A DNA stretch of 42,414 bases from Alistipes sp. Lineage in GTDB: Bacteria; Bacteroidota; Bacteroidia; Bacteroidales; Rikenellaceae. The stretch covers positions 1-42,414 of the forward strand of contig JAFWYM010000028.1 of the NCBI GenBank assembly GCA_017517705.1, written 5' to 3'. Position numbers and translations under genes: made by a program. Numbering within the stretch: position 1 is the first letter of the stretch; each line of letters opens with the position of its first letter. The notes beneath the pieces are model-generated. The model made no database searches, had not been told where the DNA came from, and saw only the letters and a program-made list of their open reading frames with translations. This document shows, piece after piece, positions 24,091-39,862 of the stretch.

Positions 24091-24921
24091 ATGGAAATCA
24101 AAGCAGCTGATGTAATGAAGCTCCGCAAGATGACCGGCGCAGGTATGATGGATTGCAAGAAGGCTCTTCAGGAGGCTGAGGGCGATTTCGAGCGCGCTAA
24201 GGATATCATCCGCGAGAAGGGTAAGCTCGTCGTAGCTAAGCGTTCAGACCGTACTGCTACTGAGGGTGTTGTTGTAACTAAGATCGTTGGCCAGAAGGCT
24301 TATATCCTCTGCCTCGCTTGCGAGACTGACTTCGTAGCAGCTAACGTAGAGTTCGGTGCTTCGGCAAACGCTATGTTGGAGGTTGCCGTTGCTGCTGATG
24401 CAGCAGACCGCGATGCTCTTATGGCAGCTAAGAACGCCGAGGGTAACACTGTTGAGGAGATGGTTACCGAGAAGTCGGGCCAGACAGGTGAGAAGGTAGA
24501 GCTCGCATACTATGCTCGTATCGAGGCTCCCTACTGCGTATCATACGTTCACTTCAACAAGAAGCTCGGTACTATCCTTGGCTTCAACAAGGCTATCGAC
24601 GAGGAGGTAGCTAAGAAGGTAGCTATGCAGGCAACAGCTATGGCTCCCCTCTCAATCGACGAGAACGACTGCCCCGCAGAGGTTGTTGAGAAGGAGAAGG
24701 CTATCCAGATGGAGATGATGAAGCAGGATCCCAAGAACGCCAACAAGCCTGATGCTATCCTCGAGAAGATCGCTGAGGGTAAGATGCGTAAGTTCTTCGA
24801 GGAGAACACTCTTCTCAACCAGTGTGTTGTAGGCGAGAAGGAGTCTATCCGCGAGTTCATCCAGAAGGCTGATAAGGAGGCTACTGTAGTTGCTTACAAG
24901 CGTTTTGCTCTCGAGGCATAA
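24091..24921 (+). CDS. tsf: Translation elongation factor Ts
   Basis: 276 residues, normal length. EF-Ts is the GDP/GTP exchange factor of EF-Tu. The N-terminal UBA-like part reads VMKLRKMTGAGMMDCKKALQEAEGD, followed by AKDIIREKG. The EF-Tu-contacting TDFV motif lies in CETDFVAAN. The second dimerisation core repeat is seen as APYCVSYVHFNKKLGTILGF. It is separated from rpsB by a terminator-like hairpin and followed immediately by a large inverted repeat whose left arm begins in the stop codon. Confidence 0.97.
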   Translation: MEIKAADVMKLRKMTGAGMMDCKKALQEAEGDFERAKDIIREKGKLVVAKRSDRTATEGVVVTKIVGQKAYILCLACETDFVAANVEFGASANAMLEVAVAADAADRDALMAAKNAEGNTVEEMVTEKSGQTGEKVELAYYARIEAPYCVSYVHFNKKLGTILGFNKAIDEEVAKKVAMQATAMAPLSIDENDCPAEVVEKEKAIQMEMMKQDPKNANKPDAILEKIAEGKMRKFFEENTLLNQCVVGEKESIREFIQKADKEATVVAYKRFALEA

Positions 24922-25047
24922 ATTTCTTGTGATAAGGTGTCTACTTCGGCACCTCAGTCAAAATCCCGAATAGGAAATACGTCAAGTATGTCCTATCCGG
25001 GATTTCTCGTATCGGCACCAAATTAGACACCTTCTGATAAGAAATTT
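24920..25047 (+). repeat. 128-nt nested inverted repeat after tsf, with conserved loop segment
   Basis: Outer arms of 24 nt (24920-24943 and 25024-25047) pair with one G-U and two mismatches. Inside, 15-nt arms (24961-24975 and 24991-25005) pair with one mismatch around a 15-nt loop that can fold again as ATAC-gtcaa-GTAT. The segment 24974-24993 (GAAATACGTCAAGTATGTCC) recurs after mdh. No U-tract follows. It may be a terminator, a 3' stability element or a dispersed repeat. Confidence 0.75.
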
Positions 25048-25068
25048 GGGCTAACCTGAAGACTGTTG

Positions 25069-25104
25069 TTTAATGAATTTAGGGAATTTAATGAATTTAG
25101 GGAG
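25069..25104. repeat. 18-bp direct tandem repeat
   Basis: TTTAATGAATTTAGGGAA occurs twice in a row, the second copy differing only in the last base. It lies in the AT-rich gap 25048-25160, which holds no gene. Confidence 0.7.
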
Positions 25105-25160
25105 TTTTAGGCGACGCTTGGAGTAATTCCTAACTACTAATTTCTAATTCAAATTTACTA

Positions 25161-25195
25161 TTGACACAACTTGTCAAAAAGTGGTTGTTACTTTG
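25161..25195 (+). promoter_or_regulatory. Promoter with a palindromic operator-like site
   Basis: A perfect palindrome TTGACA-N5-TGTCAA (25161-25177) lies where the -33 box is expected for a -7 box TTACTTTG (25188-25195, one change from TAnnTTTG). The -7 box ends 13 nt before the ATG at 25209. A repressor bound here would block the promoter; which one is unknown. Confidence 0.5.
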
Positions 25196-25208
25196 CATCG
25201 TGAAACAA

Positions 25209-25451
25209 ATGATAACGATGACTAAAACAACCAATGCTATGGGACTTAACTACACGATAGATTGTTGCCACTGCGGCTCGCACACCGTATATCGAGCTGC
25301 TACAAATCGTCGCACGATGCGTGTCGATGCGAGCCATATTGCCGATAATATCGACACCGAGTGTGCCATCCGTTGCCCTGTATGTCGCTCGAGGCTAAAT
25401 ACTTCGCGCAATGACTTCCTACGTCAGGTGAAGATTGAGGTCGAAGCATAG
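25209..25451 (+). CDS. Small zinc-ribbon-like protein, function unknown
   Basis: About 80 residues from the ATG at 25209 (25218 is also possible). A longer frame from 25161 would run through the promoter and operator and is not credible. It has two Cys pairs (CCHCGS and CAIRCPVC) about 35 residues apart, fitting a treble-clef or zinc-ribbon fold, with basic flanks. The leader would be only about 8 nt long. It stands alone between tsf and the prxQ-recA operon. I do not recognise a named family. Confidence 0.6.
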   Translation: MITMTKTTNAMGLNYTIDCCHCGSHTVYRAATNRRTMRVDASHIADNIDTECAIRCPVCRSRLNTSRNDFLRQVKIEVEA

Positions 25452-25491
25452 CTTTTGCTTATGGTACGATAGATAAAAAGTGTCGGCTATA

Positions 25492-25523
25492 TTTCTCGGT
25501 TTAGGAAAAAATAAGTAACTTTG
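25492..25523 (+). promoter_or_regulatory. Promoter of prxQ-recA
   Basis: TTTC, 20-nt spacer, TAACTTTG, ending 36 nt before the prxQ ATG. Confidence 0.65.
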
Positions 25524-25559
25524 AAAGTGAAATAATAATAATACTTAAAACGATACATT

Positions 25560-26033
25560 ATGAGTAAGCTAAATATAAAGGTCGGAGACCTTATTCCCAA
25601 CTTCACAAGCGTAACAGAGAGTGGCGAGAGCTTCACTCTCGAAAACCTCAAGGGCTCGCCCACGGTGCTCTATTTCTACCCCAAGGATAACACTTCGGGG
25701 TGTACGCTGGAGGCTAAGAGCTTGCGCGACGGTAAGGATGAGTTGCTTGCACGTGGCTATAAGATTGTGGGTGTAAGCCCCGACTCGGTAAAGTCGCACC
25801 AGAACTTCTGCACGAAGCACGAGCTTAACTTTACGCTCTTATCGGATGCCGACCACTCGTTGTCTACGGCAGTTGGTGTGTGGCAGAAGAAGAGCATGTA
25901 CGGCAGGGAGTATATGGGCATCCTGCGCACAACGCTCCTCTTGGATGGTGATGCCCGCGTGACACACATCATCGAGAAGGTCGACACGAAGGACTCATAC
26001 GGTCAGATAGTCAAGCTTTTGGATAAGGAGTAA
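25560..26033 (+). CDS. bcp: Thioredoxin-dependent thiol peroxidase (PrxQ/Bcp)
   Basis: 157 residues, normal for PrxQ. It reduces H2O2 and organic hydroperoxides with thioredoxin. The peroxidatic Cys48 lies in YFYPKDNTSGCTLEAKSLRD. The resolving Cys that E. coli Bcp has five residues later is Lys53 here. Another Cys, Cys84 in HQNFCTKHELNFTLLSD, is 36 residues after the peroxidatic one, the spacing known for PrxQ enzymes with the resolving Cys in helix 3 (as in Xylella fastidiosa PrxQ). It lies 18 nt upstream of recA and probably shares its transcript. Confidence 0.94.
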   Translation: MSKLNIKVGDLIPNFTSVTESGESFTLENLKGSPTVLYFYPKDNTSGCTLEAKSLRDGKDELLARGYKIVGVSPDSVKSHQNFCTKHELNFTLLSDADHSLSTAVGVWQKKSMYGREYMGILRTTLLLDGDARVTHIIEKVDTKDSYGQIVKLLDKE

Positions 26034-26051
26034 ACGTAAAAAACATATATT

Positions 26052-27068
26052 ATGGCAGAGAAAGTACAGGTTAACGCCGATAAGCTTAAGGTGTTGTCGG
26101 CGGTGATGGACAAGATCGAGAAGGATTTTGGCAAGGGCTCGATTATGCGTATGTCGAGCGAGACGGTCATGGATGTTCCGGTGATACCTACGGGCTCTAT
26201 CACCTTGGATATGGCTCTTGGCGTAGGAGGCTACCCTAAGGGTCGTGTTATCGAGATCTTTGGCCCCGAGTCGTCGGGTAAGACTACGCTGGCGATACAT
26301 GCCATTGCCGAGGCTCAGAAGGCGGGAGGCATCGCTGCCTTTATCGATGCGGAGCACGCCTTCGACAGCTACTATGCCCAGAAGCTCGGCGTAGATGTGG
26401 ATAACCTCCTCGTGTCGCAGCCCGACAATGGCGAGCAGGCGTTGGAGATTGCCGATTCGCTCATTCGCTCGAGTGCCATCGATATCATCGTCATCGACTC
26501 TGTCGCGGCGCTCACGCCCAAGGCTGAGATCGAGGGCGACATGGGCGACTCGAAGATGGGCCTTCAGGCGCGTCTTATGTCGCAGGCATTGCGTAAGCTC
26601 ACGGCCTCGATATCTAAGACCAAGACCGTATGTATCTTCATCAACCAGCTGCGCGACAAGATTGGCGTAGTTTATGGTAATCCTGAGACTACGACGGGTG
26701 GTAATGCCCTGAAGTTCTATGCCAGCGTGCGTATCGACATACGTCGCTCGTCGGTAATCAAGGATGGCGAGGAGCAGCTCGGCACACGCACGAAGGTTAA
26801 GGTGGTGAAGAACAAGGTGGCACCTCCGTTCAAGAAGGCGGAGTTCGACATCATGTTTGGCGAGGGTATCTCGAAGTTGGGCGAGATTATAGACCTCGGT
26901 GTCGACTATGAGATTATCAAGAAGTCGGGCTCGTGGTTCTCGTATGGCGATAAGAAGATAGGCCAGGGCCGCGATGCTGTGAAGGAGGCGTTGAAGAACG
27001 ACCCCGCATTGATGGAGGAGGTAGAGCTTCGCGTGCGCGAGGCTATGAGCGAGGCTCGCGCTAAGTAG
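26052..27068 (+). CDS. recA: Recombinase RecA
   Basis: 338 residues. RecA forms filaments on single-stranded DNA for homologous recombination and repair. It has Walker A GPESSGKT (71-78), [10 protein letters not shown], Walker B region [24 protein letters not shown], the L2-loop region [30 protein letters not shown] and the C-terminal [11 protein letters not shown]. The acidic tail seen in E. coli is short. I see no SOS-box-like palindrome before it; it is probably transcribed with prxQ. Confidence 0.98.
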
Positions 27069-27093
27069 CACGCCTCGAGATATAGAGTATGGC

Positions 27094-27129
27094 CCGAACA
27101 CGGCTACCGATAGGGTAGTCGTGATTCGG
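27094..27129 (+). terminator. Long hairpin between recA and the RSH gene
   Basis: CCGAACACGGCTACC pairs along its length with GGGTAGTCGTG-ATTCGG, with a single bulged A and one G-U, around a 4-nt loop. No U-tract follows and the next gene starts 36 nt later, so it may be a transcript-end stabiliser or attenuator rather than a full terminator. Confidence 0.5.
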
Positions 27130-27164
27130 TGTATATATGGTTTAAGAGATAAAAATTAGAGAGT

Positions 27165-29408
27165 ATGGAGTATTCACCCGAGGATGAGATACTGATTGAA
27201 GATAAGTGGCAGGAACTTGTCGAGGCATGCCGCAAGGCTAAGGTATGCCGTAGGGATGACGACTGGCAGTTTGTCCGTCGCGCCTTCTTCCTCGCGAAGG
27301 AGGCGCATAAGGGCGTGCGTCGTCGCTCGGGTGAGCCCTACGTGATACACCCCATAGAGGTGGCGCTTATTGCCGTGCGCGAGATAGGTCTCGGCAAGAA
27401 GTCTGTTGTAGCAGCGCTGCTGCACGACGTTGTCGAGGACACGGACTATACGGTGGAGGATATAGCCCACGCCTTCACTCCGAAGATAGCGTCGATGGTC
27501 GACGGCCTGACGAAGATGTCGGGGGTGTTTAATGCCGATAGCTCGGAGCAGGCGGAGTACTTCCGCAAGGTGTTGCTCACGCTCTCGGACGACGTGCGCG
27601 TCATCATCATCAAGATTGCCGACCGCCTGCACAATATGCGCACGCTCGGCGCCATGCCCCACAACAAGCAGATAAAGATTACAAGCGAGACGATATACCT
27701 CTTCGTGCCGCTGGCCTACCGCCTCGGCCTCCACGCCATAAAGAGTGAGTTGGAGGACTTGTGTATGAAGTATCGCTTCCCGGAGGAGTATGCCGCAATA
27801 CAGCAGAAGATTGAGGATACGCGTGGCGAGCGTCAACAGTATATTGAGCGTTTTATGGCACCCATCCGTGAGGTGCTGGATAGAAATAAGTTCCAGTACG
27901 AGATGACGGCGCGCGTAAAGAGCGTCTACTCCATCTGGAATAAGATGCGCCGCAAGGAGATACCCTTCGAGGAGGTCTACGACCTCTTCGCCATACGCAT
28001 TGTGTTTAAGGCGCTGCCCTTCCCGTCGGAGAAGACGCAGTGCTGGCAGGTATATTCGTGCGTTACGGATATATATACGCCTAAGCCCGACCGCCTGCGC
28101 GACTGGATAAGCATACCCAAGTCGAATGGCTACGAGGCGTTACACTCCACGGTCATGGGCCCCGATGGTATCTGGGTCGAGGTGCAGGTGCGCACGGAGC
28201 GCATGGACGACATCGCTGAGCGTGGCTTCGCGGCACATTGGAAGTATAAGCACGCCTCTATTGCAGCCGAGGAGGATGGCCTCGATAAGTGGCTCAAGAA
28301 GGTGCGCGATGCACTGAATAGCCCTACGGAGAATGCCCTGGAGTTCTTGGATAACTTCAAGCTGTCGTTGTATAAGAGCGATGTCGTGGTCTTTACTCCC
28401 AAGGGCGAGCCTCAGTCGCTGCCCTATGGCGCCACGGTGCTCGACTTTGCTTATGAGATACACACGAAGATTGGCCATCACGCCATTGGTGCTAAGATAA
28501 ACCACCGCATTATGCCCATCACCACGCGCCTCAATAGTGGCGATCAGGTGGAGGTCATTACGGCAGAGAATGCCCGTCCGAAGGCCGAGTGGCTCGATGC
28601 TGTGGTTACGAGTAAGGCGCGCCAAGCTATCCAGGACTTCCTGAAGCGCGAGCGCGAGAATAATATAGACTACGGCATGGAGTTGTTGCAGCAGCGTCTG
28701 GCGGAGCATAATGTCGCACTCAGTGGCCGTGTGCTGCGCAAGCTGATGCCGGCGTATGAGTGCCACAATAAGGATGAGCTCTATAGCAAGATAGGTGCGG
28801 GTATCATCAAGCTCGACAACCTCGACAAGCTTCTCAAGGAGAACTCCTCGCGTAAGATTCTCAAGTTCTGGAAGCTCCTCATCCCTGGTAGTAAGAGGGA
28901 TGATGATGCGGATATAGACCTTGATGATGAGGCAGCATCGCTCGATGATACGGTTGTTGCGGATGATGCCAACGAGCCTGAGTTCGTCATGGCTGAGTGC
29001 TGCGAGCCCATACCCGGCGATAGGGTTGTAGGCTACCGCGATCCGCAGAGTGGATCTATCATTGTGCATAAGTCGACGTGCGATACGCTTATCCGCCTTG
29101 CTGCACAGTTTGGCGATAACATCATTAAGGAGGAGGATATCAAGTGGTCGCAGCATAAGGCTGTGTCATATTTGGCTACCGTGGAGATTCGTGGAATTGA
29201 CCGTACGGGCATCATCCTCGATCTGACGAAACTTATCACACAAGACTTCAGCATAAATATGCGTGCTATTAGCGTGCAGTCGCACGATGGCATCTTTGAG
29301 GGTACCATCAGCATCTACGTTCAGGACATCGATAGCCTGAATGTGCTCTTGGATAATATCCGTAAGATAAAGGGTATCGATAGGGTAAAGCGCCTGCTTA
29401 ACACCTAA
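27165..29408 (+). CDS. Bifunctional (p)ppGpp synthetase/hydrolase (RelA/SpoT homolog)
   Basis: 747 residues, a long-form RSH. The hydrolase domain has the intact metal motif LLHDVVEDTDYT (His87-Asp88, Glu91-Asp92) and ADRLHNMRTL. The synthetase domain has KSVYSIWNKMRRKEIPFEEVYDLFAIRIVF, DWISIPKSNGYEALHSTVMGP and VEVQVRTERMDDIAERGFAAHWKYK. A TGS domain follows (VVFTPKGEPQSLPYGATVLDFAYEIHTKIG), then a zinc-finger-like segment (AECCEPIPGDRVVGY...HKSTC) and a C-terminal ACT domain. Both catalytic centres look complete, so it probably makes and degrades the stringent-response alarmone. An acidic insert (about 583-603) precedes the CC motif. Confidence 0.96.
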   Translation: MEYSPEDEILIEDKWQELVEACRKAKVCRRDDDWQFVRRAFFLAKEAHKGVRRRSGEPYVIHPIEVALIAVREIGLGKKSVVAALLHDVVEDTDYTVEDIAHAFTPKIASMVDGLTKMSGVFNADSSEQAEYFRKVLLTLSDDVRVIIIKIADRLHNMRTLGAMPHNKQIKITSETIYLFVPLAYRLGLHAIKSELEDLCMKYRFPEEYAAIQQKIEDTRGERQQYIERFMAPIREVLDRNKFQYEMTARVKSVYSIWNKMRRKEIPFEEVYDLFAIRIVFKALPFPSEKTQCWQVYSCVTDIYTPKPDRLRDWISIPKSNGYEALHSTVMGPDGIWVEVQVRTERMDDIAERGFAAHWKYKHASIAAEEDGLDKWLKKVRDALNSPTENALEFLDNFKLSLYKSDVVVFTPKGEPQSLPYGATVLDFAYEIHTKIGHHAIGAKINHRIMPITTRLNSGDQVEVITAENARPKAEWLDAVVTSKARQAIQDFLKRERENNIDYGMELLQQRLAEHNVALSGRVLRKLMPAYECHNKDELYSKIGAGIIKLDNLDKLLKENSSRKILKFWKLLIPGSKRDDDADIDLDDEAASLDDTVVADDANEPEFVMAECCEPIPGDRVVGYRDPQSGSIIVHKSTCDTLIRLAAQFGDNIIKEEDIKWSQHKAVSYLATVEIRGIDRTGIILDLTKLITQDFSINMRAISVQSHDGIFEGTISIYVQDIDSLNVLLDNIRKIKGIDRVKRLLNT

Positions 29409-29573
29409 GAGTGTGAATGTGCTATTCCTCTTGTTATATGCTCTATCATCGCTGCGTGCCGTGCATCGATTGCCGAGTTGCAAAGGTGGGGTAGTCGCAG
29501 TTTTAGGATAAATACGGTTGTTAATAGCTACTTCTTAAATATGATATTTTTGGACTAAATTTCAAACTTAATT

Positions 29574-29960
29574 ATGGCAACGATTTTTTCACGAATTGTA
29601 GCAGGCGAGATTCCCTGTTATAAGGTTGCGGAGAACGATCGCTTCTTCGCCTTCCTCGACATTGCTCCATTGGCAAAGGGTCACACTTTGGTTATTCCTA
29701 AGCGCGAGGTAGACTATTTCTACGACTTGGAGGATGATGAACTACGCGAGATGGTGGTTTTCGCTAAGAGTATTGCGAAGAAAATTCAGGCAACTACAGC
29801 GTGCAAGAAGGTGGCAACCGTGGTTTTGGGCCTCGAAGTACCCCATGCACATATCCATTTGGTGCCTATGAACACCGAAAAGGATGTCGATTTTAGTAAG
29901 GAGAAGCTACAGTTAACACCAGAAGAGTTCGCCGAAATTGCCGAGTCTCTTCGCTTGTAG
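29574..29960 (+). CDS. HIT-family nucleotide-binding protein
   Basis: 128 residues, Hint-like branch. It hydrolyses nucleoside phosphoramidates and related substrates (family knowledge). The start ATIFSRIVAGEIPCYKVAEND, the central AFLDIAPLAKGHTLVIPKREVDYF and the catalytic histidine triad HAHIHLVPM near residues 94-102 are all present. A TATTTTTG -7 box lies at 29545-29552 without a clear -33 box. It stands alone and is followed by a strong terminator. Confidence 0.95.
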   Translation: MATIFSRIVAGEIPCYKVAENDRFFAFLDIAPLAKGHTLVIPKREVDYFYDLEDDELREMVVFAKSIAKKIQATTACKKVATVVLGLEVPHAHIHLVPMNTEKDVDFSKEKLQLTPEEFAEIAESLRL

Positions 29961-29991
29961 GAGGTTGTTAATAACTTTTAACTTACTGAAT

Positions 29992-30037
29992 ATAAGTGCG
30001 GTGCATGTTTATAAACAATGCGCTGCACTTATATTTT
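29992..30037 (+). terminator. Terminator of the HIT gene
   Basis: A 15-bp stem (ATAAGTGCGGTGCAT / ATGCGCTGCACTTAT, two G-U pairs) with an 11-nt loop is followed by ATTTTTA. Confidence 0.85.
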
Positions 30038-30558
30038 TAACATAATATACCCACTCTCTTTCTCACTCCCTATTTTCGCACTCGGAGATCACTTTTTCAT
30101 AATATATTTGTCAAATCTTTACACTTGTAATTACAAATGTAAAACAACCACATCTGTAATATTACAAATATTATTACAATTGTAATTACAAAAGTATGGT
30201 TTAATAACTGTTAATAGTTACACATGTCAATTTTTAGGAAGCATATCACACTCCATTATTTTCCTGAGATTTCCGTTATTTCAATTACTAAACATTAATT
30301 TTTAAATAGTGTATATTCAGCACATTACAATATCTATATAAATTAGATTTTTGTTAAATATTGTTATGGGTGTAATTTTCCGATATTCCTGTGTAGTTGT
30401 GCTATTAAATGTGTGTAAAGCATAGAAAATGAGCGTTATATGCTATTTATATAAATCTAATTATATCTTTACTTATTTTTGATTATTTACCATAATTCTG
30501 TAATTTACAAATGTGATAGTTGTTAACAATCTCTGTTGATTCACTTTTGTAACCATTA
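30038..30558. other. AT-rich non-coding tract upstream of the XRE-type regulator
   Basis: No credible gene in either strand; much richer in A and T than its surroundings. It holds the palindrome cluster at 30125-30191, scattered TGTAA/TTACA half-sites (for example near 30324, 30499 and 30546), and a widely spaced inverted pair (about 30335-30350 and 30449-30465, ATATAAATTAGATTT against AAATCTAATTATAT). A regulatory region or an untranslated RNA is possible. Confidence 0.5.
30125..30191. promoter_or_regulatory. Cluster of TTGTAATTACAA-type palindromes (operator-like)
   Basis: The exact 12-bp palindrome TTGTAATTACAA occurs at 30125-30136 and 30180-30191. TGTAATATTACA lies between them (30155-30166) and TTACAATTGTAA overlaps the last copy (30174-30185). 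The same half-site TTACAA/TTGTAA flanks the regulator's promoter 400 bp downstream. Binding by the adjacent regulator is inference. Confidence 0.5.
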
Positions 30559-30590
30559 TTTGCATTACAAAAATAAAGTTTGTATATTTG
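30559..30590 (+). promoter_or_regulatory. Promoter of the XRE-type regulator gene
   Basis: TTTG, 20-nt spacer, TATATTTG, ending 15 nt before the ATG. TTGTAA half-sites lie just upstream, within the spacer (ATTACAA) and across the -7 box (TTTGTAA), which fits autorepression. Confidence 0.65.
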
Positions 30591-30605
30591 TAAAAAATAT
30601 AGATT

Positions 30606-31040
30606 ATGAAGGAAAAACTCGAATTTTTGCTCCGAACAAAGAGTCTTACGGCGACATCGCTCGCTCGTCTACTCGAAATACAGCCCTCTGGCATATCTCA
30701 TATTTTGTCGGGGCGTAACAAGCCGAGCTTCGATTTTGTCGTGAAGGTTCTTCGTGTTTTCCCTGATATTAATCCCGATTGGCTGCTATTGGATGATGAT
30801 CGTGTCTATCGCGATGAGACGGACTCTTCGAGGTTCAGCCCCACTACCTCATCAGATGGTGGCGATGTTCTGCAGGAGGCTCCTTCTGTAGGAGCGCAAA
30901 ATATCGAGTCTGCGACGACGTGTGTCGATGTAAAAAATGAGCAGCCGCGCATTTTTTCGGATGCAATATCTAATGGAAAAACCGTAGAGCGTATCATCAT
31001 TCTCTACTCCGATAAGAGCTTCGAGAGTTACGGCAGATAG
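30606..31040 (+). CDS. XRE-type helix-turn-helix transcriptional regulator
   Basis: 144 residues. Residues about 3-58 form a Cro/C1-type helix-turn-helix (LEFLLRTKSLTATSLARLLEIQPSGISHILSGRNKPSFDFVVKVLRVFPDINPDWLL). A variable Ser/Asp-rich middle follows. The C-terminus VERIIILYSDKSFESYGR is a motif I recall at the end of a widespread Bacteroidota regulator family of unknown target. The promoter is embedded in TTGTAA half-sites, so it probably controls itself. It has no co-transcribed partner: uvrB is convergent downstream. Confidence 0.88.
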   Translation: MKEKLEFLLRTKSLTATSLARLLEIQPSGISHILSGRNKPSFDFVVKVLRVFPDINPDWLLLDDDRVYRDETDSSRFSPTTSSDGGDVLQEAPSVGAQNIESATTCVDVKNEQPRIFSDAISNGKTVERIIILYSDKSFESYGR

Positions 31041-31140
31041 TGGCTTAGTTGTTTGTTGATGCGTTGCTCTTTGACTATTCTTTGGACTTCGTTGCGGATT
31101 GGTAGTATTCGCATCTCCCCATTGTTGCTTTATAGCATCT

Positions 31141-31181
31141 CTCTTCTTTGGGTGAAGAGTCTCTCTCTTGTGGGTTTTTTA
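31141..31181 (+). terminator. Weak terminator of the regulator gene
   Basis: CTCTTC-tttgggt-GAAGAG (6-bp stem at 31141-31159), then a pyrimidine-rich stretch with a run of six Ts at 31175-31180. Confidence 0.4.
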
Positions 31182-31203
31182 TTGTGCTGCTCTCTGTGAA
31201 TAT

Positions 31204-31244
31204 TATTTTATAAATATGCAATATAATTGCATATTTATAAAATA
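31204..31244. repeat. Perfect AT-rich 19-bp palindrome with 3-nt loop
   Basis: Arms 31204-31222 and 31226-31244 are exact reverse complements, reading TATTTTATAAATATGCAAT on the left. It lies between the convergent regulator and uvrB genes, 44 nt beyond the uvrB stop. No U-tract is adjacent; it could be a bidirectional terminator or a protein-binding or recombination site. Confidence 0.75.
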
Positions 31245-31287
31245 TGTCTGCGAAAGATTTTTATCCTGTTAGAGCCCGCTGTAGGGA

Positions 31288-33357
31288 TTATAGTTGTTTG
31301 CGTAGCTTCTGTAGTTCGTACATGCGGTCGCGGTGTCGTGCTGCAGCTATAAAGTCGAGGGCCTTTGCAGCGCTCTCCATTGCCTCACGAGCCTCGGCAA
31401 TGAGCCTATCTACGCTCTCTGCTGTTACGCTGATACTCTCGATAGTTTCGTTTTGCAACCCTGCTCTATGCTCGCTGCCCGCTGCTTTATATTCGGCATA
31501 GCCCTCGGCAACGATGCTTGTTCTCTCCGTCTCCTCTCCACTACTCTGGTTTAGCAGTGTGCTCTGTCCGCGTCCGCTCTTCTTGGCGCTTCGTGGAAGG
31601 ATGTTGTTATCGTAGTTGTATGCTACCTGCTTCGAGCGACGGCGGTTGCTCTCGATTATAGATGTGCGCAGCGATCCTGTTACCACATCGCCGAAGAGTA
31701 GCGCTTGTCCATTTGTGTGGCGTGCTGCACGTCCCGAAATCTGTGTTATGGCGCGCACGTTGCGCAGGAATCCATCCTTGTCGGCGTCGAGGATGATGAC
31801 CATACTCACCTCGGGGAGGTCTATGCCCTCGCGTAGGAGGTTGACACCGACGATGACGTCTATCTTGCCATCGCGTAGGTCTTCGAGTATCTGTATGCGG
31901 TTAAGGGTCTCGACGTCGGAGTGTATATAGCTATTGCGTATGCCTACGCGCCCTAAGTAGCGTGATACCTCTTCGGCCGAGGCCTTAGATATGGTTGTTA
32001 CTATCGCTCTCTCGCCACGGTTTACTACGGCATCTATGGCCTCTATGACCTCATCCATCGGGTGCTCAGCGCTGCGAAGCTTGAGTGGCGGGTCTACGAT
32101 GTGCGTGGGGCGTATGAGCTGCTCTATTATCTCGCCATAGCTCTGTTCTATCTCGTAGTCGGCAGGCGTGGCGCTCACGTATATCGTCTTTGAGACCATC
32201 GCCTCATACTCAGCGAATTGCAACGGGCGATTATCTAATGCTGCGGGTAGGCGAAAGCCATACTCCACGAGGTTCTCCTTGCGCGAATGGTCGCCACCGT
32301 ACATGCCGCGTATCTGTGGTACGGTGACATGACTCTCGTCGATGACCGTGATGAAGTCCTTCGGGAAGTAGTCTATAAGGCAGAATGGGCGCGACCCGGG
32401 AGCGCGGTTGTCCAGGTATCGCGAGTAGTTCTCTATGCCCGAGCAGTAGCCGAGCTCGTTGATCATCTCTATGTCGTACTCCACGCGCTGCTTTATGCGC
32501 TGAGCCTCAATCTCGCGACCCTCGCTCTCGAAGTATGCTATCTGTGTTGCGAGGTCTTGGCGTATGTTGTCCACGGCGCGACGTATCTGGTCGCGTGTCG
32601 ACACGAAGAGGTTTGCGGGGTATATCGTCACGCTATCGAGCGACGATAGCTTCTGTCCCGTGGCGGGGTCAATGGTATAGATGGCCTCAATCTCGCGGTC
32701 GAAGAAGAGTATTCGGAAGCACTGACTGCCAAACTCGCCAAACGATGCCATGATGTCTATGCTCTCGCCCGTGACGCGGAATTTCGCGGGCGTTAGCTCA
32801 CCATCGGTGCGGTCGTAGAGGGCATCCACAAGCCGTATGAGTAGGTCTTTGCGGTGATGCCTGTCACCCACCTTGAGCTCTATGGCCGAGGCGTGAAAGG
32901 CCTCAGGGTTGCCACAGCCGTATATGCACGACACGCTCGATACGACGATGATGTCACGACGTCCCGAGAGGAGCGTTGCCACGGTCTTGAGCCTCATACG
33001 CTCTATCTCGTCGTTTATGGCGAGATCCTTCTCTATGTATGTGTCTGTCGATGGTATGTAGGCCTCGGGCTGGAAGTAGTCGTAGTACGACACGAAATAC
33101 TCTACGGCATTCTCAGGGAAGAAGTTCTTGAACTCACCATATAGCTGTGCCGCGAGGGTCTTGTTGTGGCTTATTACGAGCGTAGGCCTGTTCAGGCGCT
33201 CTATGACGTTGGCTACGGTAAATGTCTTTCCCGAGCCCGTCACGCCAAGGAGTGTCGTGCCGCGCTTGTCATCCTCCTCTACGGCCTTGACCATCTGTGC
33301 TATGGCCTCGGGTTGGTCGCCCGTAGGGGTGTATTGTGCCACAAGTTTGAAATCCAT
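31288..33357 (-). CDS. uvrB: Excinuclease ABC subunit UvrB
   Basis: 689 residues, full length. UvrB is the damage-verifying helicase-like subunit of nucleotide excision repair with UvrA and UvrC. It has Walker A GVTGSGKT (38-45), the beta-hairpin region [30 protein letters not shown] (motif II), the helicase C-terminal motifs ([39 protein letters not shown]), and the C-terminal UVR domain ([30 protein letters not shown]). A TATCTTTG box ends only 4 nt before the ATG on the minus strand (33362-33369), which hints at a leaderless or nearly leaderless mRNA. Confidence 0.97.
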
Positions 33358-33465
33358 ACCGCAAAGATAATACTTTTTTCGCGATGATAATTAGTAATGC
33401 GCTATTATCAATGAGTAGTGAGTAATTAGAGGACACGGTTCCTCGCCAACGGACTAAGCGTACCA

Positions 33466-33498
33466 AACAAAAAAAGAGAGAAACTTTCGCTTCTCTCT
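33466..33498 (-). terminator. Terminator of tRNA-Leu
   Basis: Minus strand: AGAGAGAA-(8 nt)-TTCTCTCT stem followed by TTTTTTTG, 6 nt past the tRNA 3' end. Confidence 0.85.
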
Positions 33499-33503
33499 CT
33501 TAG

Positions 33504-33587
33504 TACCCAGAGCCGGGGTCGAACCGGCACAGGGGTGAACCTACTGGTGTTTGAGACCAGCGCGTCTACCGATTCCGCCATCTGGGC
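33504..33587 (-). tRNA. tRNA-Leu (anticodon CAA)
   Basis: The minus strand gives acceptor GCCCAGA/TCTGGGT, a long class II variable arm, T arm GCCGG-TTCGACC-CCGGC and anticodon loop CTCAAAC with CAA, decoding UUG. Discriminator is A; CCA is not encoded. Confidence 0.95.
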
Positions 33588-33611
33588 ATCAGATTTCTCC
33601 GATTTGGTGTG

Positions 33612-33642
33612 CAAATGTAGATATTATTTTGTAATTAGCAAA
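33612..33642 (-). promoter_or_regulatory. Promoter of tRNA-Leu
   Basis: Minus strand TTTG, 19-nt spacer, TACATTTG: an exact consensus match, 24 nt upstream of the tRNA. Confidence 0.8.
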
Positions 33643-33689
33643 ATTTTTTGCAACTTTTTTTCTCAACAAGGTAAAAAGTGCCGATATAA

Positions 33690-33722
33690 TTTGCTGGATA
33701 AGAAATTTTTTATCTATCTTTG
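33690..33722 (+). promoter_or_regulatory. Promoter of the thiamine operon
   Basis: TTTG, 21-nt spacer, TATCTTTG. Transcription would begin just at the riboswitch 5' end. Confidence 0.75.
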
Positions 33723-33724
33723 TG

Positions 33725-33802
33725 CTGACAAAGGGGTGCCTTCATTGGCTGAGATTATACCCTCGAACCTGATGCAGTTAGTACTGCCGTAGGAATTGTG
33801 GA
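33725..33802 (+). promoter_or_regulatory. TPP riboswitch (THI element)
   Basis: The hallmark segments are present in order: AGGGGTGCC, the pyrimidine-sensor loop GGCTGAGATTATACCC, and the pyrophosphate-sensor part GAACCTGATGCAGTTAGTACTGCCGTAGGAA. ACAA (33728-33731) and TTGT (33796-33799) can close helix P1. It precedes thiD and an intrinsic terminator starts 10 nt later, so thiamine diphosphate probably stops transcription. Confidence 0.96.
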
Positions 33803-33811
33803 TAATATCAT

Positions 33812-33851
33812 AACGCATACCCCATAAGTGTAGGTATGCGTTTTCTTTTTT
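33812..33851 (+). terminator. Riboswitch-controlled terminator
   Basis: Ten-bp stem AACGCATACC/GGTATGCGTT with an 11-nt loop and a T-rich tail (TTTTCTTTTTT), 34 nt before the thiD ATG. Confidence 0.9.
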
Positions 33852-33885
33852 AGGGCCCCGTTGTTGTACTTTTAATTATGTTCGT

Positions 33886-34785
33886 ATGAAACAGAAAGTT
33901 AACAACACCGAGGGGTGCTTGAATACCTATCCCTCACATTTGCGCAGGCGGCGTTACCCCGTCGTTCTATCCATCGCTGGCTCCGACTCCTCGGGAGGCG
34001 CGGGCATACAAGCCGACATCAAGACCCTCTCAGCGCTGGGTGTCTATGGCGCCACAGCCATTACGGCCATCACGGCGCAGAATACATGTGGCGTACACAC
34101 CCAGATGGCAGTGCCGGCGCAGATGGTCTACGATCAGATTATTGCCGTCGTGGAGGACGTCTCGCCCTCGGTCGTAAAGATTGGCATGCTCGCGAATGTA
34201 GATGTAGTATGTGCTGTAGCTGAAGCACTTATGCGCTACTCTATACCCGTAATTCTGGACCCTGTGATGGTGTCGAGTAGCGGTCATCGACTCCTTGCTA
34301 TCGAGGCGCAGGAGGCCGTTATCAAGCACCTGTTACCTATGTCTATGCTTATCACGCCCAACATCCCGGAGATGGCGGCGCTTACATCCATGCCTCTGTC
34401 CTCCGATACGGAGAAGATGGCCGCTGCGAGCCATCTCATGGCACGCGGTGCTCGAGCGATACTCCTTAAGGGTGGTCACGAGGAGGGTGCCACGAAGAGC
34501 GACATCCTCTATCGGCATACCGCGGAGGGTATTGTCACAACCACCTTCACGTCGCCTACCATCGCTACGCGTAACGTCCATGGCACGGGATGTACGCTCT
34601 CGTCTGCAATAGCCGCCTTTGTGGCGCGTGGCTATGGCTTGGTGGAGGCTGTAGATGCCGCCAAGCGCTACGTATATGAAGCCATAGAGGCTGGTGCTGA
34701 TGTAGCCATTGGTGGTGGCTTTGGCCCTGTAAATCATCTGTTTGGCCCACAACCTATGCAAATATATGAGGACCGAACACTATAA
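33886..34785 (+). CDS. thiD: Hydroxymethylpyrimidine/phosphomethylpyrimidine kinase ThiD
   Basis: 299 residues. ThiD phosphorylates HMP twice to HMP diphosphate in the pyrimidine branch of thiamine synthesis. The ribokinase-fold motifs are VLSIAGSDSSGGAGIQADIKTLSALGVYGATAITAITAQNT near the N-terminus, KIGML, LDPVMVSSSGH, LITPNIPE, LLKGGH, and the anion hole HGTGCTLSSAIAAF. About 26 residues precede the usual start region, with no nearer ATG, so an extension seems real. thiE overlaps its 3' end by 20 nt. Confidence 0.95.
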   Translation: MKQKVNNTEGCLNTYPSHLRRRRYPVVLSIAGSDSSGGAGIQADIKTLSALGVYGATAITAITAQNTCGVHTQMAVPAQMVYDQIIAVVEDVSPSVVKIGMLANVDVVCAVAEALMRYSIPVILDPVMVSSSGHRLLAIEAQEAVIKHLLPMSMLITPNIPEMAALTSMPLSSDTEKMAAASHLMARGARAILLKGGHEEGATKSDILYRHTAEGIVTTTFTSPTIATRNVHGTGCTLSSAIAAFVARGYGLVEAVDAAKRYVYEAIEAGADVAIGGGFGPVNHLFGPQPMQIYEDRTL

Positions 34786-35401
34786 ACTACAGTTTATCAC
34801 GCACCACAATGCCCGCTTCTCGTATGTAGACTCTGCCCGCCTTGCGCTTGAGGGTGGCTGTCGCTGGGTGCAGTTGCGCATGAAGGGGGCTGAGGAGGGT
34901 GTGCTTGAGTCGGCAGCACGCGAGGTGCTGAGGCTGTGTCGAAGCTACGATGCCACCTTTATCATCGACGATGATGTAGCTCTTGCGCAGCGTATCGGCG
35001 CCGATGGCGTGCATCTTGGAAAGGAGGATATGTCGATTGCCGAGGCTCGCGCGATACTTGGCCGGGGGTATATCATTGGCGCTACGGTCAATACATTCGA
35101 GGATGTGTTGAGTCATACTCGGGGTGTTATGCCCGACTATTTTGGCTGTGGCCCCTATCGTTTTACGTCGACCAAGGAGCGCCTTGCGCCCACACTCGGA
35201 GAGGATGGCTATCGCGACATCGTGGGTAGGATGTGTGTCGCCAACATAGCCATACCTATTGTCGCCATAGGAGGCATTGCCAAGGATGACATCCCGATAC
35301 TGCTCGATTGTGGCGTTGATGGCATTGCGCTGAGTGGCTCGGTGCTGAATGCCGAGAATCCCATTGCCGAGATGCGAGATATTTCCACGATGTTATATTG
35401 A
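34766..35401 (+). CDS. thiE: Thiamine-phosphate synthase ThiE
   Basis: 211 residues from the ATG at 34766, which overlaps thiD by 20 nt; a TTG at 34742 in the same frame is less likely. ThiE joins HMP diphosphate and thiazole phosphate to thiamine phosphate. Seen are WVQLRMKG (substrate binding), FIIDDDVALAQRIGADGVHLGKEDM, GATVNT, GCGPYRFTSTKERLAPTLG and VAIGGI near the C-terminus. The usual 'iND' Asn is replaced by Asp (IIDDD), which leaves the Mg2+-binding aspartates. It is the better conserved of the two ThiE-like proteins in this operon. Confidence 0.92.
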   Translation: MRTEHYKLQFITHHNARFSYVDSARLALEGGCRWVQLRMKGAEEGVLESAAREVLRLCRSYDATFIIDDDVALAQRIGADGVHLGKEDMSIAEARAILGRGYIIGATVNTFEDVLSHTRGVMPDYFGCGPYRFTSTKERLAPTLGEDGYRDIVGRMCVANIAIPIVAIGGIAKDDIPILLDCGVDGIALSGSVLNAENPIAEMRDISTMLY

Positions 35402-35416
35402 AAATCAACAACCTAA

Positions 35417-37012
<1,596 letters not shown>

Positions 37013-37046
37013 TCCATTAACCAATAATTTAAAAAATAAATTACGT

Positions 37047-37820
37047 ATGATTGAAAGAAGAGTATCACATGGAATCATCTCGACTTACTTCGATAAGTTG
37101 GATAGAAATTTGGATCTCGATGTTGCCATTGTTGGTGGTGGCCCTTCGGGTATCGTTGCGGCCTACTACCTCGCCAAGGAGGGCTTCAAGGTGGCATTGT
37201 TCGACAGGAAACTATCGCCCGGAGGTGGCATGTGGGGTGGCGCTATGATGTTTAACCAGATTGTCGTGCAAGAGGAGGCCCTGCATATCGTCGAGGAGTT
37301 TGGCATCAACCATACGAAGTACGACGGCAACCTATATGTCATGGACTCGGTGGAGAGCACCTCGGCACTGCTATATAAGGCAGTACATGCGGGTGCTACC
37401 ATCTTCAACTGCTACTCTGTTGAGGATGTGATATTTAAGAATGATGTCGTCAGTGGCGTTGTGGTCAACTGGACTCCCGTTTTGCGCGAGGGGCTGCATG
37501 TCGACCCGCTAAACATCTTGGCACGATGTGTTGTCGACGGCACGGGGCACGATAGCGAGATGTGTACTACAGTGGCGCGTAAGAATGGCATACGCCTCGC
37601 CACCGACACGGGTGCCGTCATCGGTGAGCGCTCGTTGGATGTTGTCGCGGGCGAACAGGAGGTTGTCAATGGCACCAAGGAGATATACCCGGGTCTTTAT
37701 GTCTGCGGCATGGCGGCATCGGCCGTGAGTGGCACGCCACGCATGGGCCCGATATTTGGAGGCATGCTCCTCTCGGGTAAGCGTGTTGCTGACCTTATCA
37801 TCGAGCGACTCAAGCGCTAA
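37047..37820 (+). CDS. thi4: THI4-type thiazole synthase, probably sulfide-dependent
   Basis: 257 residues from the ATG at 37047. A longer frame from 37002 overlaps the thiC end and adds 15 residues without family support. THI4 proteins make ADP-thiazole from NAD and glycine. The dinucleotide motif is DVAIVGGGPSGIVAAYYLA (25-43), followed by DRKLSPGGGMWGG and the C-terminal GMAASAVSGTPRMGPIFGGMLLSGK. In suicidal yeast and plant enzymes a Cys just before 'xDP' donates the sulfur; here the segment is EGLHVDPL, with His151 at that place, as in the methanogen enzymes that use free sulfide and turn over repeatedly. No thiG, thiS, thiF or thiH lies in this operon. Confidence 0.93.
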   Translation: MIERRVSHGIISTYFDKLDRNLDLDVAIVGGGPSGIVAAYYLAKEGFKVALFDRKLSPGGGMWGGAMMFNQIVVQEEALHIVEEFGINHTKYDGNLYVMDSVESTSALLYKAVHAGATIFNCYSVEDVIFKNDVVSGVVVNWTPVLREGLHVDPLNILARCVVDGTGHDSEMCTTVARKNGIRLATDTGAVIGERSLDVVAGEQEVVNGTKEIYPGLYVCGMAASAVSGTPRMGPIFGGMLLSGKRVADLIIERLKR

Positions 37821-37824
37821 GGCG

Positions 37825-38364
37825 ATGCTACGTATTGCGATAACGCTACCCGAGGCTATCGACGGGGAGGCTGCCATCATTCGGCGCCTCCTTGCCGAGG
37901 GCTTCGATATTGTGCATCTGCGTAAGCCCGATGCCGATATTGAGTATTGCCGGGCGTTGCTCCGAAAGCTACGCGCGGCAGATAGACGTAGGATTGTCGT
38001 TCACGACTACTACCCTCTATACGAGGAGTTTGCACTCCGTGGCGTGCATCTTAACAGACACGTCACACATCTCCCCGAGGGGTACCGTGGCTCACGCTCG
38101 CGCTCGTGCCACTCCTTCGCCGAGGTAGTACAACATAAGAGTGATTGCGACTACCTATTTCTCAGCCCCATATTCGACAGCATATCCAAGCGTGGTTACT
38201 GCTCGGCCTTTAGCCACGAAGAGCTGCAGAGGGCTGCCAATGAGGGTATCATCGATAGCCGGGTAGTCGCCCTTGGAGGTGTCACTCCCGATAAGATACC
38301 ATATTTAGAGTCGTTACACTTCGGTGGGGTAGCGATGTCGGGAGCCATATATATATCAGGCTAA
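37825..38364 (+). CDS. ThiE/TenI-like protein (second copy)
   Basis: 179 residues from the ATG at 37825, 4 nt after the thi4 stop; a longer frame from 37729 only overlaps thi4. It shows the TIM-barrel pattern of ThiE/TenI: DIVHLRKPDAD, IVVHDYYPLYEEFALRGVHLNR, YLFLSPIFDSISKRGYCSAF and VVALGGVTPDKI...GVAMSGAIY. It is shorter than thiE here, and the 'QLR.K' and metal-Asp loop are changed (HLRKPD, VHDYY), so it may not be a full thiamine-phosphate synthase. TenI is a thiazole tautomerase in ThiG-type pathways, a step that THI4 should not need. Its role is open. Its stop overlaps the convergent nifX-like gene by 4 nt. Confidence 0.82.
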   Translation: MLRIAITLPEAIDGEAAIIRRLLAEGFDIVHLRKPDADIEYCRALLRKLRAADRRRIVVHDYYPLYEEFALRGVHLNRHVTHLPEGYRGSRSRSCHSFAEVVQHKSDCDYLFLSPIFDSISKRGYCSAFSHEELQRAANEGIIDSRVVALGGVTPDKIPYLESLHFGGVAMSGAIYISG

Positions 38365-38714
38365 TGATTTCCGCAGTCGTGGTGGTCGCAACCCTCGCCC
38401 GAGTCCATGACAAAACCGAGGAGGTAGCCCTTGACTACGGCCTCTACATCACCCTTGCAGCCACGTATAACCTTGATGTTGTGGCTCTCGAGCTTATTCT
38501 TGGCGCCCATGCCCATATTGCCTGCGAGCATCACCTCAATGCCCATATCCTCCATCACCGAGGCTATGTTGGACTTACATCCGCAACCCTCGGGTGAGTC
38601 TAAGCGTGTGGTTGAGACAATAGCGCCATTCTCCACCTCGAAGATGGTATAGAAGGCACAGTGACCAAAGTGGTCGTCAACATGTCCATCGCGTGTAGGT
38701 ACTGCTATCTTCAT
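38361..38714 (-). CDS. NifX/NifB-type Fe-Mo cofactor-binding domain protein
   Basis: 117 residues, dinitrogenase iron-molybdenum cofactor-biosynthesis domain alone. The fold marks are KIAVPTRDGHVDDHFGHCAFYTIFEV, SNIASVMEDMGIEVMLAGNMGMGAKNKLESHNIKVIRGCKGDVEAVVKGYL. Two metal-like clusters stand out: PEGCGCKS near 43-47 and a C-terminal tail CDHHDCGNH. Stand-alone proteins of this kind occur in many anaerobes without nitrogenase and are thought to bind Fe-S or other metal clusters. It is convergent with the thiamine operon with overlapping stop codons, so the two transcripts probably interfere or share a terminator region. Confidence 0.88.
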   Translation of the reverse strand: MKIAVPTRDGHVDDHFGHCAFYTIFEVENGAIVSTTRLDSPEGCGCKSNIASVMEDMGIEVMLAGNMGMGAKNKLESHNIKVIRGCKGDVEAVVKGYLLGFVMDSGEGCDHHDCGNH

Positions 38715-38786
38715 GATCTTAACGTCTTAATTAGTAATTAGTAAACAGCAATTAGTGGTGCTAACTCACCCCCCCCACATTAAGAG

Positions 38787-38832
38787 ATTGGGCTGGATGG
38801 ATATACTTGACGTATTTCACATTCAGCCCAAT
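38787..38832 (-). repeat. Hairpin after mdh with the conserved loop segment
   Basis: A 13-bp stem (ATTGGGCTGGATG / CATTCAGCCCAAT, one G-U) closes a 20-nt loop. Read in the mdh sense (minus), the loop region contains GAAATACGTCAAGTATATCC (38799-38818), matching the tsf-flanking segment in 19 of 20 bases. It lies 38 nt past the mdh stop, with no U-tract. Confidence 0.7.
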
Positions 38833-38869
38833 TATTGTGGTGGCGGCGTAGCGCCACTATCTCCGGAGA

Positions 38870-39862
38870 TTAGAGGTTGGGGTTAATCTTAGACCACTCC
38901 TCGATAGCGGGAACGATGCCGAGTGTTACGAGCTCATCGCGCATCTTGCAGAGGTGAGCGTATGAAGCATCGAGTTTAGCAATCTCCTCCTCGGTACCCA
39001 CGGGCATCTTGTACGAACAGCCGTTCTTGTCGAGCGTGGTGTCCATAGCCATCATGATGTGGTTGTACTTCTCGTTAGATACATACGTACCTGCAGGGAA
39101 ACGGAAGGGCTCGCCACCCATAACCGAGCGAATCATCTCTACAGAGAGATATGAGGGGCTCTGGAACGATGAACGGCCACGGAGCTTGATGATAGCAGCA
39201 CCGCCCTGTGTTACAGCCTTCTTCATCTCCTCCCACTCCTCTGCGGGGAACTCCTCAGTGCCGATGATGTCGGTGAGCTTGCGGCCGGCAATCTTCACAG
39301 CGCTGCCGAATACAGCCATCTGCTCGCCGTGACCACCATATGTTGCGCAACCCTCAATCTCGCTCTGCATAACGCCGAACTTCTTGGCAAGGGCGCTCTT
39401 AAGACGTGTGGTGTCGAGACCTGCAAGGGTAGTAACCTGTCCGGGCTTAAGACCTGAATAGAGGAGGGTTACAAGACCTGTAAGGTCGGCAGGGTTGAAG
39501 ATGATAACCACGTGCTTAACATCGGGGCAGTAAGTCTTGATGTTCTTGCCGAGCTGCTCTGCAATCTCGCAGTTACCCTTCAAAAGATCCTCGCGAGTCA
39601 TACCCTCCTTACGGGGAGCACCACCCGACGAGATGATGTACTTAGCATCCTTGAAAGCCTCAGCCACATCGGTAGTAGCCGTGATGTTTACATTGTCGAA
39701 ACCGCTCTGGCGCATCTCCTCGGCAACACCCTCGGGTGAGAATACGTCGTAGAGGCAGATGTTCTTCGTAAGACCCATCATAAGGGCCGACTGAACCATG
39801 TTCGAGCCGATCATGCCGGCAGCACCAACGATAACGAGCTTGTCTTCAGTAAGAAAGTTCAT
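38870..39862 (-). CDS. mdh: Malate dehydrogenase
   Basis: 330 residues, lactate/malate dehydrogenase fold, NAD-linked interconversion of malate and oxaloacetate in the cytoplasm. The dinucleotide motif is IVGAAGMIGSN (11-21), followed by the active-site loop GGAPRKEGMTREDLLKGN with the substrate-binding arginines, the NPADLTG segment, the substrate-binding LDTTRLKSALA, and the catalytic His in YGGHGEQM. In Bacteroidota it belongs to the fumarate-succinate fermentation branch. It has its own promoter and is followed by a hairpin with the shared loop segment. Confidence 0.94.
   Translation of the reverse strand: MNFLTEDKLVIVGAAGMIGSNMVQSALMMGLTKNICLYDVFSPEGVAEEMRQSGFDNVNITATTDVAEAFKDAKYIISSGGAPRKEGMTREDLLKGNCEIAEQLGKNIKTYCPDVKHVVIIFNPADLTGLVTLLYSGLKPGQVTTLAGLDTTRLKSALAKKFGVMQSEIEGCATYGGHGEQMAVFGSAVKIAGRKLTDIIGTEEFPAEEWEEMKKAVTQGGAAIIKLRGRSSFQSPSYLSVEMIRSVMGGEPFRFPAGTYVSNEKYNHIMMAMDTTLDKNGCSYKMPVGTEEEIAKLDASYAHLCKMRDELVTLGIVPAIEEWSKINPNL

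What the first reader, a model, noticed from the sequence alone, without database searches (positions are those of the whole stretch)
24974..38818. Two 3'-flanking hairpins share a 20-nt segment in the same transcript sense
GAAATACGTCAAGTATRTCC occurs at 24974-24993 (plus, after tsf) and at 38799-38818 (minus, after mdh), differing in one base. In both places it sits at the tip of a stem-loop within 75 nt downstream of a stop codon and reads in the same direction as the gene before it. The flanking stems differ in sequence but keep the pairing. The inner ATAC-gtcaa-GTAT can fold again. This is the pattern of a conserved RNA element or a dispersed 3' repeat, not of a plain terminator. A shorter CGTCAAGT also lies past the Na/Pi symporter in its transcript sense (15917-15924), which may be chance. 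I cannot name a described family.
Basis: partly seen in the sequence, partly recalled or inferred. Interest (0 to 1): 0.72.

Follow-up and report, generated by a model that had tools for sequence, protein, structure and literature searches.

The report
Fold-back repeats hugging stop codons
The two matching hairpin tips are parts of a widespread DNA repeat of about 127 letters that usually sits right behind the stop codons of ordinary genes in a group of bacteria, folds back on itself, and probably works as a spreading transcription stop signal.

Summary
The 20-mer is the tip of a ~127-nt imperfect fold-back unit. The window holds three units (after tsf, mdh and a DJ-1-family gene) and a half-remnant after dnaA. 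A covariance model finds 59 places in the own genome and matches in 65 of 101 genus genomes (relatives deposited as Alistipes/Rikenellaceae); a second family of the order has diverged relatives.

Pairing is conserved while sequence changes: 25 of 35 pairs have double changes, 95.6% of cells pair. Units abut stop codons in sense: 107 of 146, antisense 12 of 180.

In type A units the inner hairpin is followed by a U-rich tract in sense only; at tsf it lies near where relatives without a unit have a plain terminator. Five identical copies lie at five sites of one genome, and copies resemble those in their own genome. At mdh, orthologues run from full units, through units with only the 5' arm, to plain terminators.

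Best reading: a dispersed fold-back element that carries, and can decay into, an intrinsic terminator. Mobility enzyme unknown: Y1 transposase absent, no target duplication or autonomous copy seen; no Rfam match. New variant of the ERIC/REP kind; termination and movement are inferred, not measured.

The parts
24921..25046 (+). Full fold-back unit behind tsf (tip type A, AAATAC-N5-GTAT); its first A is the last base of the TAA stop codon
   Evidence: R1 124.6 bits, E 2.1e-28 (this unit was in R1's own alignment, so it matches by construction); fold -53 kcal/mol
24961..25005 (+). Inner hairpin of the tsf unit, terminator-like, U-rich tract TTTCTCGT at 25003-25010
   Evidence: hairpin -19.2 kcal/mol, U tract 81 nt after the stop
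24974..24993 (+). Tip 20-mer of the finding
38743..38871 (-). Decayed unit behind mdh; left (5') arm recognisable, right (3') arm not
   Evidence: R1 49.8 bits, E 8.5e-10, not in R1's alignment; left-arm score above and right-arm score below shuffles (L281)
38799..38818 (-). Tip 20-mer of the finding
41618..41746 (+).
   Evidence: R1 66.1 bits, E 7.7e-14, not in R1's alignment; sequence; gene
15893..15934 (+).
   Evidence: sequence, compared by eye with units printed; gene; no model match there

Best explanation
A family of dispersed ~127-nt fold-back DNA elements occupies gene 3' ends in this Alistipes-like clade. Each unit has two outer arms that pair (P1, its sequence free to vary), a middle stem (P2) with conserved flanking loops, and an inner hairpin with a tip RTAC-N5-GTAY. 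Shown: copy number, orientation, stop-codon abutment, covariation, within-genome resemblance, and (type A) a U-rich tract after the inner hairpin in sense. Inferred: the inner hairpin terminates transcription of the gene directly upstream; the outer arms are not needed for that and serve the spread of the unit as DNA (folded single strand or recombination), which may explain why their pairing, not their sequence, is kept; once in place, the terminator is kept and the 3' arm erodes, leaving a plain terminator. How a unit reaches a new stop codon is not known.
For: Structure: 25 of 35 pairs with double changes, 95.6% of cells paired, covariation score 0.448 against 0.128 shuffled and 0.03-0.10 slid. 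Placement: stop of an ORF of 60 or more codons at -3..+6 for 107 of 146 first-of-array places, antisense 12 of 180, random 223 of 7300; stops before units TAA 78, TAG 7, TGA 3 against background 303/162/39, OR 5.2. Terminator: in 135 type A units T in the 9 nt after the inner hairpin is 4.10 in sense, 1.88 in antisense; 5 or more T in 58 against 1; at tsf 13 of 17 unit-bearing loci have hairpin + U tract at +78..+89, and 11 of 13 loci without a unit have one at +43..+83. Spread: five identical units at five sites of G059 with different upstream sequences; nearest neighbour in the same genome 36 of 90, permuted mean 4.2, maximum 13. Decay: at mdh (26 loci) both arms 5, 5' arm only 10, 3' arm only 0, neither 11.
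Against: Type B inner hairpins show no sense excess of T by the same measure (25 units, 2.40 against 2.52; there the U run can pair with an A run). In the other family (f109) the inner hairpin has no evident U tract (by eye), so termination need not be the ancestral role. 4 of 17 unit-bearing tsf loci had no terminator detected in the first unit. At tsf 5'-arm-only loci are just 2 of 30, one marginal (L206) and one (L229) with its 3' arm displaced by an insert, so decay rests on mdh. The dnaA remnant keeps only the right half. No Y1 transposase, target duplication or autonomous copy was found. Of the five identical copies three abut a stop, one lies 15 nt behind it, one is a second unit, and two share a similar right flank. 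They could come from gene conversion among old sites. tsf and mdh loci are from related species, so counts are not independent. No RNA data.
Confidence: 0.6

Rival explanations
1. An RNA-level 3'-UTR element: the whole 127-nt hairpin forms in read-through mRNA, is cut by an RNase and protects or destabilises the upstream message, as proposed for ERIC and NEMIS. P1 pairing is kept for the RNA.
For: Covariation of all three helices and conserved mismatches; sense placement at stops; f109 relatives keep the fold with no evident U tract.
Against: The U tract of type A lies before the 3' arm in sense, so much of the RNA should end before P1 can close; at 10 of 26 mdh loci only the 5' arm is detectable, at none only the 3' arm.
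Confidence: 0.2
2. An ordinary MITE: the terminal inverted repeats of a DNA transposon moved in trans by an IS transposase.
For: Five identical copies at five sites in one genome; size and fold are MITE-like (PMC2229807, passages).
Against: No duplication flanks the five identical copies (by eye); terminal arms vary while pairing holds (9 of 11 P1 pairs with double changes), also between units with nearly identical interiors (L266; three clean pairs with L147), whereas a transposase end should be constant; no long copy with these ends in the loci held; none in plasmids, phages or, by tip pattern, viral contigs.
Confidence: 0.08
3. Old gene-end hairpins inherited by descent and homogenised only by gene conversion; nothing inserts at new sites.
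For: The same gene (tsf) carries units of different types in different species; elements resemble same-genome paralogues more than orthologues in 7 of 8 comparisons from 4 pairs; one half-chimera among 206 units.
Against: Occupancy differs between related species at tsf and mdh, and tandem second units appear (10 adjacent pairs in the own genome, each on one strand); losses alone could still explain much of the difference.
Confidence: 0.12

Closest known systems
ERIC/IRU (127 bp, enterobacteria)
   Same: Length, imperfect fold-back, intergenic (PMC2229807 and PMC2267715, passages)
   Different: ERIC is summarised there with a 7-bp TIR and a target duplication; here the arms vary, no duplication is seen, and the unit abuts stop codons in sense
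GTAG REPs / BIMEs with RAYT transposases
   Same: Palindromic repeats near gene ends; GTAG REP ends often supply a TAG stop (PMC3733652, passage)
   Different: REPs are 20-40 bp (its abstract, listing); the Y1 domain is in 1 of 101 genus genomes, G076, which has no copy by pattern or model
Uptake-sequence terminators of Neisseria and Pasteurellaceae
   Same: A dispersed repeat that serves as intrinsic terminator at gene ends (PMC1852404, passages)
   Different: Those are pairs of a 9-11 nt word; here a 127-nt covarying unit
Palindromic candidate RNAs of Bacteroidetes in a human-microbiome screen (HMP2_4205, 132 bp, and others)
   Same: Phylum, size, palindrome, predicted terminator (PMC8040213, passages)
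Integron attC sites (recalled)
   Same: Fold-back sites behind stop codons with arms that vary but pair
   Different: Here behind scattered housekeeping genes; boxes and integrase not tested by a tool

Membership tests
Intrinsic (Rho-independent) terminator | Stable hairpin directly followed by a U-rich tract in sense | tested here: met
   Type A: T 4.10 against 1.88 of 9 nt; 58 against 1 of 135 with 5 or more. tsf: 13 of 17 unit-bearing loci. Type B not shown by this measure (25 units); f109 relatives no evident U tract
Intrinsic (Rho-independent) terminator | RNA 3' ends at the U tract | not testable with these tools
   no RNA data
MITE | Constant terminal inverted repeat | tested here: not met
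   P1 pairs change on both sides in 9 of 11 pairs; arms differ between units with near-identical interiors
MITE | Target-site duplication | tested here: not met
   five identical G059 copies, flanks compared by eye; no empty site of a recent insertion was found to check
MITE | Related autonomous element | tested here: inconclusive
   none in the loci held; whole genomes not scanned for this
REP/RAYT | Y1 (RAYT) transposase in the lineage | tested here: not met
   PF01797 in 1 of 101 genus genomes; control rings in 5 of 14 known genomes
ERIC | ERIC consensus sequence | not tested
   no ERIC sequence was aligned
Any Rfam family | Match at gathering score | tested here: not met
   window: tRNA and TPP only; tsf unit with E-value up to 10: best a sub-threshold mir-26 hit, 25.9 against 57 bits
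attC | R/L boxes and an integron integrase | not tested
   considered from memory only

The most novel reading that the evidence does not exclude
A class of mobile 'terminator seeds': fold-back elements that spread as folded single-stranded DNA (or through RNA) by an unidentified, structure-reading enzyme, land precisely at stop codons, take over transcription termination of housekeeping genes, and then lose their outer arm to become the species' ordinary terminators. The same superfamily in a second family of the order (f109), again at stop codons, would make the mechanism older than the terminator role.
Probability: 0.3. Interest if true: 0.86.

Novelty: new variant of a known kind. Interest (0 to 1): 0.62.

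Why it matters
Terminators are usually treated as locally evolved sequences. Here a dispersed repeat appears to supply them at housekeeping genes, and related species show stages consistent with a path from intact unit to plain terminator. Placement at the stop codon, pairing kept while sequence drifts, and no recognised transposase together pose a concrete question: what moves or copies these units.

Tried and rejected
RAYT/REP: PF01797 in 1 of 101 genomes, a genome without copies. Mobile carriers: plasmids and phages (one unit) and viral contigs (type A tip pattern) gave nothing. Autonomous copies: solo left arm followed by solo right arm at 130-8000 nt gave 15 candidates against 3 in reversed order; the 15 lie 137-343 nt apart, too short for a gene, and were not inspected one by one. 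A k-turn reading of the GATAA/CTGA internal loop was considered from memory and dropped. L091, labelled Bacillota, has only the tip, no full unit. R2 over 395 phylum genomes found only the own genome, with stricter filters and sparse sampling. Paper searches for a prior description showed none of this repeat in their listings; subscription papers are mostly not held. The search for orthologous sites among loci in hand gave 98 hits, 16 with fewer than 6 outer pairs, used as leads; some of these hold truncated or displaced units.

Rows dropped: for A1, 193 distinct tip-bearing units, 155 with 12 or more outer pairs, 71 after length and redundancy filters, of which 48 plus the window tsf unit were given. 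For A5, 41 of 47 type B/other units plus 6 type A, 3 G308 and 2 window units. Paralogue test: 90 type A units from the 80 loci with titles, of 118. U-tract test: 162 of 192 places gave a usable inner hairpin. mdh arm test: 26 of 30 fetched loci usable. f109: with the strand as R2 gave it, stops were 8 sense and 6 antisense of 30 rows, some rows misplaced in my script; after orienting by the arm motif, 10 and 2 of 17 rows, one place counted twice. That re-orientation was made.
Full report
WHAT WAS CLAIMED AND CHECKED. Both copies are hairpin tips 52-53 nt behind a stop codon. The third, short match lies on the opposite strand of a right-half remnant behind dnaA.

WHAT IT IS. In the own genome (G000, 1.99 Mb, window = contig C41) the 13-mer core ATACGTCAAGTAT occurs three times, and GAAATAC-N5-GTATRTCC eleven times without mismatch; with 3 mismatches that loose pattern is at background (120 against 113 for the reversed control), so only the exact hits were used. 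In 101 genus genomes the 20-mer with up to 3 mismatches occurs in 56, up to 59 times in one, with reversed-pattern controls of 0-2 per genome. Flanks showed the larger unit: (T)AATTTGTTGTGATAAGG...tip...CCTTCTGACAACAAATT, about 127 nt. Two common tips, AAATAC-N5-GTAT (type A) and GTAC-N-GTAC (type B), sit in the same outer frame.

STRUCTURE. Alignment A1 (49 units) gives 35 pairs, 25 with changes on both sides. 95.6% of cells pair; the covariation score is 0.448 against 0.128 in column shuffles and 0.03-0.10 when slid. The tip sequence was used to collect the units, so its invariance says nothing; the outer arms were required to pair in part (155 of 193 tip-bearing units passed), which leans the pair percentage upward. 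Mismatches are conserved: A.C 48 of 49, A.G 47, T.C 38, G.G 35, which argues against simple correction of a palindrome.

WHERE IT OCCURS. Model R1 (the window tsf unit is in its alignment) finds 89 rows at E 0.01 or better in the own genome, 59 distinct places once both strands are merged. Three are in the window: 24921-25046, 38743-38871 and 41618-41746. In the genus 65 of 101 genomes match (counts per genome capped). Of twelve genomes searched more deeply 11 match, eight with 93-149 rows, rows counting both strands and the cap being 150 scored candidates. The exception, L091, has only the tip. In the order 2 of 295 genomes match, own and G308; two genomes of another genus of the own family do not. 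In G308's family, broader model R2 (three G308 units in its alignment) finds matches in 4 of 13 genomes: 14 rows each in G308 and G400, one each in two more. Over the phylum R2 finds 1 of 395, the own genome.

PLACEMENT. In the 118 loci R1 gives 340 rows, 192 places. 27 overlap a mechanical ORF of 90 aa or more; of the other 165 the upstream gene is same-sense in 131, opposite in 21, absent from the locus in 13. Looking only for a stop codon closing 60 or more codons at -3..+6: 107 of 146 first-of-array places in sense, 12 of 180 in antisense, 223 of 7300 random positions. The commonest offset is -2 (69 of 107): the unit's first AA is the AA of TAA. Stops before units are 78 TAA, 7 TAG, 3 TGA, background 303, 162, 39. 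In f109 the first test, with R2's strand, gave 8 sense and 6 antisense of 30 rows; oriented by the arm motif it is 10 and 2 of 17 rows. All 10 adjacent pairs in the own genome are on one strand each.

TERMINATOR. Behind the inner hairpin of 135 type A units the 9 nt hold 4.10 T in sense and 1.88 in antisense, paired test p 2e-22 (units are related, so p is indicative); 25 type B units show no difference by this measure. At tsf in 30 genomes 17 carry a unit by tip pattern. In 13 of those a hairpin with U tract lies at +78..+89 from the stop. Of the 13 without a tip, 11 have a plain terminator at +43..+83; one of these, L206 (+83), has a marginal left-arm score and may be a decayed unit. Terminators outside the first unit in unit-bearing loci are three in second units (+212..+214) and one at +241. 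The detector is crude and missed at least one hairpin visible by eye (L219).

SPREAD AND DECAY. In G059 five copies are identical over the 125 nt printed, at five sites with different upstream sequence: three abut a TAA stop, one lies 15 nt behind a stop after a stub of a left arm, one is the second unit of a tandem; two of the five share a similar right flank. Two more differ by one base. Another has the same interior but both outer arms changed together. One G059 copy is identical to a copy in G073 behind a different gene. Among 90 type A units in 35 named genomes the nearest neighbour is in the same genome for 36, against 4.2 on average and 13 at most in 500 permutations. In 4 orthologous pairs the unit is closer to a same-genome paralogue in 7 of 8 comparisons. 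Of 210 pairs with near-identical inner 76 nt, 10 have clearly different outer left arms: in three (all with L147) both members pair well, five involve L084 whose arms pair only partly, two have a broken end. Arms scored against shuffles at orthologous sites: mdh 26 loci, both arms 5, left only 10, right only 0, neither 11; tsf 30 loci, 16, 2, 0, 12. The two tsf left-only loci are weak: L206 is marginal, and L229 has its right arm displaced by an insert. The mdh sequences read as a series from full unit to plain terminator. The window's mdh unit is a mid-stage; the dnaA remnant, right half only, is a counter-example.

MECHANISM. Termination by the inner hairpin is the reading best supported for this clade. 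The 3' arm lies beyond that stop, so its pairing with the 5' arm is more easily explained at the DNA level, as part of how the units spread, than in the mRNA. That step is inference. f109 relatives have the fold and the stop-codon placement with no evident U tract, so the fold may be older than the terminator. What moves or copies the units is open: Y1 transposase in 1 of 101 genomes, no target duplication seen, no autonomous copy in the loci held, nothing in plasmids, phages or viral contigs. Other transposase, recombinase or reverse-transcriptase families were not searched.

KNOWN KINDS. ERIC (127 bp), REPs and uptake-sequence terminators are the nearest (passages read in PMC2229807, PMC2267715, PMC3733652, PMC1852404). 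A microbiome screen lists palindromic Bacteroidetes candidates of similar size (PMC8040213, passages); overlap could not be tested. Rfam has no match at its cut-offs.

Noticed in passing
window 41753-41782: Directly behind the third unit lies a 30-nt perfect palindrome made of P1/P2 letters only (GTGAAAAGGCAGC-ATCT-GCTGCCTTTTCAC), like a collapsed unit.
   Followed up: no
window 25069-25107, and behind several units elsewhere (L034, L037, L261-L270): An AT-rich short tandem repeat (GAATTTAGG-like; similar TTTAGGGAG runs) follows the units; possibly a second kind of dispersed repeat at the same gene ends.
   Followed up: no
L074-L077 (G059 tandem pairs): In these four tandem pairs the two units have different outer arms (for example TTTCTTG and TTTGTCG), which would hinder cross-pairing or recombination between neighbours.
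   Followed up: no
L032, L038: By sequence, units also follow what look like tRNA 3' ends rather than stop codons; ARAGORN was not run on these two loci.
   Followed up: no
L229 about 2033-2326: A tsf unit with an insert that pushes its right arm away, outer arms still complementary.
   Followed up: partly
L202 against L201 (G082 against own genome, tsf locus): Closely related genomes (tsf 98.7% identical); G082 has an extra partial unit behind the tsf unit, so array length differs between close relatives.
   Followed up: partly
L194 and L126 against L094 and L198: Upstream genes 93% identical, yet one side has a different or truncated unit ending in a terminator-like hairpin.
   Followed up: no
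window 33722-33812: TPP riboswitch, 62.3 bits.
   Followed up: no
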